Origin: Gemmatimonadota bacterium
GTDB taxonomy: Bacteria > Gemmatimonadota > Gemmatimonadetes > Gemmatimonadales > GWC2-71-9
Assembly (NCBI GenBank): GCA_029262195.1
Contig: JAJCZX010000021.1
Location: forward strand, 1-64,000
Direction: 5' to 3'
Length of the DNA: 64,000 nucleotides
The translations under genes and the position numbers were made by a program. Under the pieces are notes generated by a model, which made no database searches, was not told the origin of the DNA, and saw only the letters and a program-made list of their open reading frames with translations. This document shows, one piece after another, positions 14,633-15,944 of the stretch (positions are counted from its first letter, which is position 1; each line of letters starts with the position of its first letter).

Positions 14633-15711
14633 CCGTCACCCAGACAGACGCCCAGGTCCCGAGCCGTTTGGACTGTATCCGCCCCAAGCGGGACGGTTTT
14701 CAGTTGCCCGATTCCGTCTTTGATCGGCATCGTCAATACCTCCTGGCCAGCAAACGTGACCATTTTTCCAAACTCGCCTCTTTCCGCTGCGCGAACCGCA
14801 GCAGCGCCAAACCTGACCGCAAGGAGGCGGTCGAAGGTTGTGGGTGAACCGCCTCTCAACAAATGGCCGAGCGTTAGTGTCCGTGTTTCTTTTCCGGTTT
14901 TGGCGTGGATTGCGTTCGCAACCAATTCAGCTATTCCACCAAGCCGCTCGACCCCTCCGGGCTCTCCGGGATCTCTCAGGCTAACACCACCGTCCTTAGG
15001 GGCGGCGCCTTCAGCTACAACCACTATGGAAAACGGGATGCCCCTGGCCTCTCGATCACGGACTTTCTTGCAAACGGATTCGATGTCGTATGGGATTTCG
15101 GGGATGAGGATCACGTCAGCGCCACCCGCCAATCCCGAGTGTAGGGCGATCCACCCCGCGTTCCTTCCCATTACTTCAACAACCAGGACGCGCTCGTGGC
15201 TTTCAGCCGTAGTGTGTACCCGATCTAGAGCCTCGGTGGCGATGGAGACTGCGGTGTCGAACCCGAAAGTCACATCCGTGGCACCCACGTCATTGTCAAT
15301 CGTTTTAGGCACTCCGATCACCGGAAGACCAAGCTCAGAAAGCTTTTGCGTTATGGCCAGTGTGCCGTCTCCACCAATCGCGATGAGGCAGTCGAATCCT
15401 CGCTCCCTGAACACAGCCGCTAACTCTGCAGACCTGTCCTCTTCTCTCCACTTGCCGTCCAACCCCAGGAGTGGCCAACGAAACGGATTCCCCCGGTTGG
15501 TTGTACCGAGGATTGTACCGCCCTGGTGGATAATGCCACGGACGTTTTTTGATTTAAGCCTGATTATGCGCGCGTCTCCAAGAAGTCCACCGAACCCCCG
15601 GCGACTTCCGTACATCTGGAAGCCCTTGGTAAGACCCGAGGAGACCGCTCCCTTAATAACGGCATTCAGGCCCGGCGCATCTCCACCCCCGGTAGCAATT
15701 ACTATTTTCAA
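14629..15711 (-). CDS. pfkA: 6-phosphofructokinase (PfkA family)
   Basis: ATGGGDAPGLNAVIKG, IGGDGTL, GVPKTIDNDV, EVMGRNAGWIAL; TTG start overlapping the upstream stop. Confidence 0.9.
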   Translation of the reverse strand: MKIVIATGGGDAPGLNAVIKGAVSSGLTKGFQMYGSRRGFGGLLGDARIIRLKSKNVRGIIHQGGTILGTTNRGNPFRWPLLGLDGKWREEDRSAELAAVFRERGFDCLIAIGGDGTLAITQKLSELGLPVIGVPKTIDNDVGATDVTFGFDTAVSIATEALDRVHTTAESHERVLVVEVMGRNAGWIALHSGLAGGADVILIPEIPYDIESVCKKVRDREARGIPFSIVVVAEGAAPKDGGVSLRDPGEPGGVERLGGIAELVANAIHAKTGKETRTLTLGHLLRGGSPTTFDRLLAVRFGAAAVRAAERGEFGKMVTFAGQEVLTMPIKDGIGQLKTVPLGADTVQTARDLGVCLGDG

Positions 15712-15944
15712 GAAGTTTCCGTTTTTTCGTTTAGCAGGCTCATGACTTCGCCGTCAAAAGGGTGTCTCCCGAGTCGCAGTTTCGAAAACACAGGTTCCCC
15801 GTCGACTGCAACTTCGAACACTCCGCCGGCGCCTTCAACCAAACGTATCCGGGCATCCGGGTAGGCCGTCTTGATCTCAACCTCCAAACTGGAGGCTCGC
15901 GGTTTGTAGTTTCAAACGCCACAATACTGTATGGTAACGTCCAT
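15708..15944 (-). CDS. SelW/Rdx-family selenoprotein, in-frame UGA read as Sec
   Basis: MDVTIQYCGV(U)NYKPRASSLEVEIKTAYPDARIRLVEGAGGVFEVAVDGEPVFSKLRLGRHPFDGEVMSLLNEKTETS*; CxxU motif, GVFEV..DG..VFSK..GR core; SD ggaga upstream. Confidence 0.85.
15879..15897 (-). promoter_or_regulatory. Candidate bacterial SECIS hairpin
   Basis: AGCCTCCA-GTT-TGGAGGTT, 8-bp stem (one G-U), G first in loop, loop begins 22 nt after UGA. Confidence 0.65.

What the first reader, a model, noticed from the sequence alone, without database searches (positions are those of the whole stretch)
15708..15944. Unannotated SelW/Rdx-family selenoprotein gene with an in-frame UGA
Seen: minus-strand frame from ATG 15944 reads MDVTIQYCGV-TGA-NYKPRASSLEVEIKTAYPDARIRLVEGAGGVFEVAVDGEPVFSKLRLGRHPFDGEVMSLLNEKTETS-stop, codon by codon, with a single internal TGA at 15912-15914. 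Known: SelW/Rdx proteins have a CxxC or CxxU redox motif (mammalian SelW starts ...VVYCGAUGYK...), and here the UGA is exactly the second redox position (C-G-V-U). The downstream GVFEV.VDG..VFSK...GR pattern is the conserved Rdx core. The stop overlaps the TTG start of pfk (TTGA), suggesting translational coupling. The ORF track instead lists out-of-frame ORFs (15740..15922 -, 15762..16037 +), so standard callers would miss it.
Basis: partly seen in the sequence, partly recalled or inferred. Interest (0 to 1): 0.9.

Follow-up and report, generated by a model that had tools for sequence, protein, structure and literature searches.

The report
Overlooked SelW-like bacterial selenoprotein gene
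This is a small redox-protein gene in a bacterium of the phylum Gemmatimonadota that reads an internal stop codon as the rare amino acid selenocysteine; the gene is real, and gene finders miss it, but the family (SelW-like selenoproteins) is already well known in bacteria.

Summary
On the minus strand, 15944-15708 encodes a 78-residue protein with one in-frame UGA at 15912-15914, in the second redox position of a CxxU motif. It is a full-length Rdx/SelW match (PF10262 67 bits; NF041051 94 bits, above cut-off) and its predicted fold matches bacterial SelW-related structures and mouse SelW. The same genome carries tRNA-Sec (UCA), selA, selB and a selD that itself has a UGA at its catalytic position. 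In 101 related genomes the ortholog has UGA, never a Cys codon, at this place. In 55 distinct sequences a hairpin 21 nt behind the UGA covaries and is far better paired than synonymous recoding allows; the window's hairpin meets all four published bacterial SECIS rules. Sequencing error, pseudogene and code reassignment are effectively excluded. The gene heads a commonly conserved selW-pfk(-helicase) neighbourhood. Biochemical function and actual selenium insertion remain inferred. It is a new, unannotated member of a known family (SelW-like bacterial selenoproteins, described at least since 2005). Interest is modest: a good annotation correction, phylum-wide occurrence in Gemmatimonadota, and an unexplained link with phosphofructokinase.

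The parts
15708..15944 (-). selW-like selenoprotein gene, 78 aa, C8-G-V-U11 redox motif
   Evidence: PF10262 67.4 bits, NF041051 93.7 bits (cut-off 88), TIGR02174 65 bits; conserved in relatives
15912..15914 (-). in-frame UGA read as selenocysteine (residue 11)
   Evidence: UGA at the same position in the orthologs found in 101 relatives; Cys in none of the orthologs
15879..15897 (-). bacterial SECIS hairpin AGCCUCC-AGUUU-GGAGGUU (8 pairs, loop G invariant), loop begins 21 nt behind the UGA, inside the coding sequence
   Evidence: MFE -11.1 kcal/mol; covariation; synonymous-recoding control; matches bSECIS constraints in PMC13188914 Fig. 2
15950..15953 (-). GGAG, likely ribosome-binding site 5 nt before the ATG
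   Evidence: sequence; inference
14629..15711 (-). pfk, 6-phosphofructokinase, TTG start overlapping the selW stop (TTGA)
   Evidence: PF00365 344 bits, PRK03202 subfamily 367 bits; directly downstream of selW in 38 of 56 Gemmatimonadota loci
11996..14632 (-). DEAD/DEAH-box helicase gene following pfk, part of the conserved neighbourhood
   Evidence: PF00270/PF00271; same strand behind pfk or directly behind selW in many relatives

Best explanation
The locus is a genuine bacterial SelW-like (Rdx family) selenoprotein gene of a Gemmatimonadota bacterium. UGA 15912-15914 is decoded as selenocysteine by SelB carrying Sec-tRNA(UCA), directed by the hairpin at 15879-15897. The product is a small thioredoxin-like-fold protein with a Cys-Gly-Val-Sec redox motif at the end of strand 1, most likely a glutathione- or thioredoxin-linked thiol/selenol oxidoreductase. 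It is probably translated first in a transcript with pfk, with translational coupling in this genome. Shown: family, conserved UGA, complete Sec machinery, conserved covarying hairpin, conserved neighbourhood. Inferred: actual Sec insertion, redox activity, co-transcription and coupling, and any functional tie to glycolysis.
For: Rdx/SelW profile hits spanning the UGA and PDB/fold matches (2fa8, 2obk, 2npb mouse SelW; pLDDT 92; TM 0.75-0.86). Own genome: tRNA-Sec 70.5 bits with UCA anticodon, SelB 348 bits with neighbours in frame, SelA 506 bits, SelD 370 bits with UGA in GAG-U-ACK. UGA in 76 of 77 genomes with a hit among 101 relatives, the exception (G067) being a marginal partial hit that the Rdx profile rejects. 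Hits in 193 of 400 phylum genomes, the listed ones carrying an in-frame TGA. UGA-SelW co-occurs with selA: 69 both, 7 SelW only (six of the seven genomes under 90% complete), 10 selA only, 15 neither, Fisher p=8e-7. Hairpin: 93.8% of cells paired against 20-56% for slid versions, 4 pairs with compensatory changes, 0-1 of 500 shuffles as good; 94% paired in 55 sequences against 69% (max 74%) after synonymous recoding, loop G 55/55. Codon-position substitution pattern typical of coding on both sides of the UGA.
Against: No expression, 75Se or mass-spectrometric data. The one other genome of the same genus (G001, 79% complete) has selA but no match. Ten genomes have selA without this gene. The shuffles and the Fisher test do not correct for relatedness. 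The folding z-score of the window sequence alone is weak (-1.16), so the SECIS argument rests on the comparative data.
Confidence: 0.97

Rival explanations
1. Sequencing or assembly error turned a Cys codon (TGC/TGT) into TGA in a Cys-type Rdx gene.
For: One base would suffice; the assembly is a draft of 42 contigs.
Against: The same TGA at the same place in the orthologs of dozens of independent genomes, including named records from Gemmatimonadales, Acidobacteria, Chloroflexi, Melghirimyces, Planctomycetia and Myxococcaceae; full Sec machinery present.
Confidence: 0.005
2. A pseudogene, or a gene in which UGA is a real stop, with only a short peptide or a reinitiated downstream product made.
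For: Standard translation stops after 10 residues; public predictions P0002 and P0003 start behind the UGA.
Against: Coding-type substitution pattern before and behind the UGA, Cys8 invariant and residue 11 always UGA, conserved covarying hairpin. The two other frames of the strand hold stops in 55 and 45 of 56 relatives.
Confidence: 0.01
3. UGA is reassigned (Trp or Gly) in this genome, so no selenocysteine is involved.
For: In-frame UGA in a coding sequence.
Against: 14 of 32 long genes of the window end in TGA and 161 TGG codons are used in them; tRNA-Sec with UCA anticodon and SelA/SelB/SelD are present; UGA sits at the redox position of a CxxC/CxxU family.
Confidence: 0.003
4. The protein is a selenoprotein but works mainly as a leader gene that ties phosphofructokinase synthesis to selenium or redox state through translational coupling, rather than as a free-standing oxidoreductase.
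For: TTGA overlap of stop and start and adjacency to pfk in 38 of 56 Gemmatimonadota loci.
Against: In other relatives the gene sits elsewhere or directly before the helicase, the overlap is not conserved, and motif and fold are conserved as in stand-alone SelW proteins.
Confidence: 0.06

Closest known systems
Bacterial SelW-like selenoproteins (PF10262 Rdx; NCBIfam NF041051 SelTWH_Campy and TIGR02174), e.g. of the Sargasso Sea and GOS sets (PMC1088965, PMC2398784)
   Same: Length, CxxU motif near the N-terminus, GxFEV.VDG...SK core, hairpin behind the UGA, Sec form dominant over Cys form
   Different: Host phylum (Gemmatimonadota) and the selW-pfk neighbourhood, neither of which I found described in the held papers
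SelW-related proteins with solved structures (2fa8 Agrobacterium Atu0228, 2obk Pseudomonas, 3dex Streptomyces) and mouse SelW 2npb
   Same: Thioredoxin-like fold, TM-score 0.75-0.86
   Different: Sequence identity only 21-35%; the bacterial ones are, to my knowledge, Cys forms
Bacterial SECIS elements (consensus model in PMC13188914)
   Same: All four constraints of the model: small loop, G then U at the start of the loop, 21 nt spacing, MFE below -7.5
   Different: Nothing notable

Membership tests
SelW/Rdx family (PF10262) | Profile match above the curated cut-off over the whole domain | tested here: met
   67.4 bits against cut-off 22.6, residues 3-71; NF041051 93.7 against 88, TIGR02174 65 against 34.2
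SelW/Rdx family (PF10262) | CxxC or CxxU motif after the first beta strand | tested here: met
   C8-G-V-U11 directly at the end of strand E2-8
SelW/Rdx family (PF10262) | SelW-type thioredoxin-like fold | tested here: met
   AlphaFold2 pLDDT 92; best PDB matches are SelW-related proteins, TMq 0.81-0.86, mouse SelW 0.75
SelW/Rdx family (PF10262) | Thiol/selenol redox activity | not testable with these tools
   needs biochemistry; the function of the bacterial proteins is described as unclear (PMC1088965)
Bacterial selenoprotein | In-frame UGA conserved in orthologs, aligned with Cys/Sec of the family | tested here: met
Bacterial selenoprotein | bSECIS: 3-9 nt loop, 4-16 bp stem, G in the first two loop positions, 16-37 nt spacing, MFE <= -7.5 (PMC13188914) | tested here: met
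   AGUUU loop, 7-8 bp, 21 nt, -11.1 kcal/mol; covariation
Bacterial selenoprotein | selA, selB, selC, selD in the genome | tested here: met
Bacterial selenoprotein | Demonstrated selenium in the protein | not testable with these tools
   75Se labelling or mass spectrometry required

The most novel reading that the evidence does not exclude
In Gemmatimonadota the selenoprotein SelW is the conserved lead gene of a selW-pfk operon, and its selenium- and SECIS-dependent translation sets, by coupling, how much phosphofructokinase is made, so that selenium or redox state steers glycolysis.
Probability: 0.06. Interest if true: 0.7.

Novelty: new member of a known kind. Interest (0 to 1): 0.3.

Why it matters
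It corrects a systematic annotation gap: the only two hits for this protein in a word-based search of 5.8 billion predicted proteins are fragments starting behind the UGA, although about half of 400 sampled genomes of the phylum carry the gene. It shows that Gemmatimonadota, a widespread and mostly uncultured phylum, commonly use selenocysteine, in SelW and (in this genome) SelD at least, and it gives a neighbourhood clue (pfk) for the unknown role of bacterial SelW.

Tried and rejected
A screen of the whole window for other UGA-bridged reading frames ranked one candidate first, 21855-22877 (+); it is two adjacent genes in the same frame (NikA-like and DUF6036 nucleotidyltransferase), with the TGA most likely an ordinary stop. 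The composition score alone does not single out the selW gene (rank about 31), so codon statistics are too weak for genes this short; the evidence is comparative. The single-sequence folding z-score was not significant and is not used as evidence. G067's hit without TGA is marginal, partial and not an Rdx by profile. Searches of papers for Gemmatimonadota selenoproteins and for SelW with phosphofructokinase found nothing relevant; the library lacks most subscription journals.

Full report
What is there. On the minus strand, ATG 15944 opens a frame that runs to TGA 15708-15710 with one internal TGA at 15912-15914. Read through, it gives 78 residues with the motif C8-G-V-U11. The ORF list of the standard code shows only overlapping frames there. 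A GGAG lies five bases before the ATG, and the stop codon overlaps the TTG start of the next gene in the form TTGA.

What the protein is. It is a full-length member of the Rdx/SelW family: PF10262 67.4 bits (cut-off 22.6), NF041051 93.7 bits (cut-off 88), TIGR02174 65 bits. PDB sequence matches are SelW-related proteins, including mouse SelW. A predicted structure from 28 aligned relatives (pLDDT 92) matches bacterial SelW-related crystal structures with TM-score 0.81-0.86 and mouse SelW with 0.75. The CxxU motif follows the first strand directly, as in the family. Invariant columns in the alignment are C8, residue 11, A17, G41, F43, E44, G49 and K55.

Is the UGA selenocysteine? The genome (4.2 Mb, 42 contigs, 93% complete) has tRNA-Sec with UCA anticodon (70.5 bits), SelB (348 bits with its neighbours in the frame), SelA (506 bits) and SelD (370 bits). 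SelD itself carries an in-frame UGA in the sequence GAG-U-ACK, the place of its catalytic Cys/Sec (my knowledge of the family), so this genome appears to use UGA-Sec in at least one further known selenoprotein. UGA is not reassigned: 14 of 32 long genes in the window end in TGA and TGG is used 161 times in them.

Conservation. In 101 related genomes, 77 have a match and 76 of these have TGA at the site; the exception is a marginal partial hit (G067) that the Rdx profile does not confirm. No ortholog with Cys in place of UGA was seen; the one TGA-free Rdx gene found (in G092) is a second copy beside a UGA ortholog. Across the phylum 193 of 400 sampled genomes have a match. Named relatives with the same UGA come from Gemmatimonadales, Acidobacteria, Chloroflexi, Planctomycetia, Myxococcaceae and Melghirimyces; the closest is Gemmatimonadales, which places the window in Gemmatimonadota. 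UGA-SelW and selA go together (69 both, 15 neither, 7 and 10 discordant; Fisher p = 8e-7, not corrected for relatedness). Six of the seven genomes with SelW but no selA are less than 90% complete.

The SECIS element. Twenty-one bases behind the UGA begins the loop of a hairpin, window 15879-15897, with stem AGCCUCC/GGAGGUU and loop AGUUU (or 8 pairs with a GUU loop). On 26 distinct sequences 93.8% of cells are paired, four of eight pairs show compensatory changes, and slid versions pair only 20-56%. As these bases also code for protein, I recoded codons synonymously: pairing fell from 94% to 69% on average (maximum 74% in 500 trials), so the protein alone does not explain the hairpin. The loop G is invariant in 55 of 55. 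In the window the usual G-C pair at alignment columns 22-32 is U-A; the two changes alter two residues (the usual RAASLA becomes RASSLE), that is, the RNA pair is kept although the protein changes (the reading is my inference).

Neighbourhood. Downstream on the same strand are pfk and a DEAD/DEAH helicase gene; upstream and divergent is an OmpA-family gene. In 56 Gemmatimonadota loci pfk follows selW directly in 38 (2-96 nt beyond the aligned end), the helicase does in 4, and 14 have neither within 250 nt. The gene order selW-pfk-helicase is thus common in the window's family and order. The exact TTGA overlap is not general. Co-transcription and coupling are plausible but untested.

Known or new. 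SelW-like proteins have long been known as bacterial selenoproteins; [quoted passage not shown] The 2026 review lists SELENOW-like, PF10262, CxxU (PMC13188914). I found no paper in the held library on SelW of Gemmatimonadota or on selW-pfk. The finding is therefore a new, unannotated member of a known kind, solidly supported, with a small open question in the pfk link. Public gene predictions miss it: only two fragments starting behind the UGA were found.

Limits. Sec insertion and redox function are inferred. Incompleteness of draft genomes blurs the co-occurrence table.

Noticed in passing
L018 1444-2577 (G000 contig C1, about 50719-51648): The genome's own selD looks like a selenoprotein gene too: in-frame UGA in LSHGAG-U-ACK, at the catalytic position; standard callers would truncate or mis-start it.
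   Followed up: partly
window 21855-22877 (+): Two adjacent genes in one frame separated by a TGA: a NikA-like protein (just under the Pfam cut-off) and a DUF6036 nucleotidyltransferase, resembling a mobile or toxin-antitoxin-like pair; not a selenoprotein.
   Followed up: partly
G092:C57:143837-144055 (-): A relative holds both a UGA-type and a TGA-free (presumably Cys-type) Rdx gene, the latter scoring higher (103.8 bits).
   Followed up: no
G031:C55:638-853 (+): A second Rdx-like copy with two in-frame TGAs in one relative, perhaps a decayed or doubly Sec-containing paralog.
   Followed up: no
L023, L027, L035, L036: selW is followed directly by the helicase gene with pfk missing from between them, suggesting loss or relocation of pfk from the cluster.
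   Followed up: no
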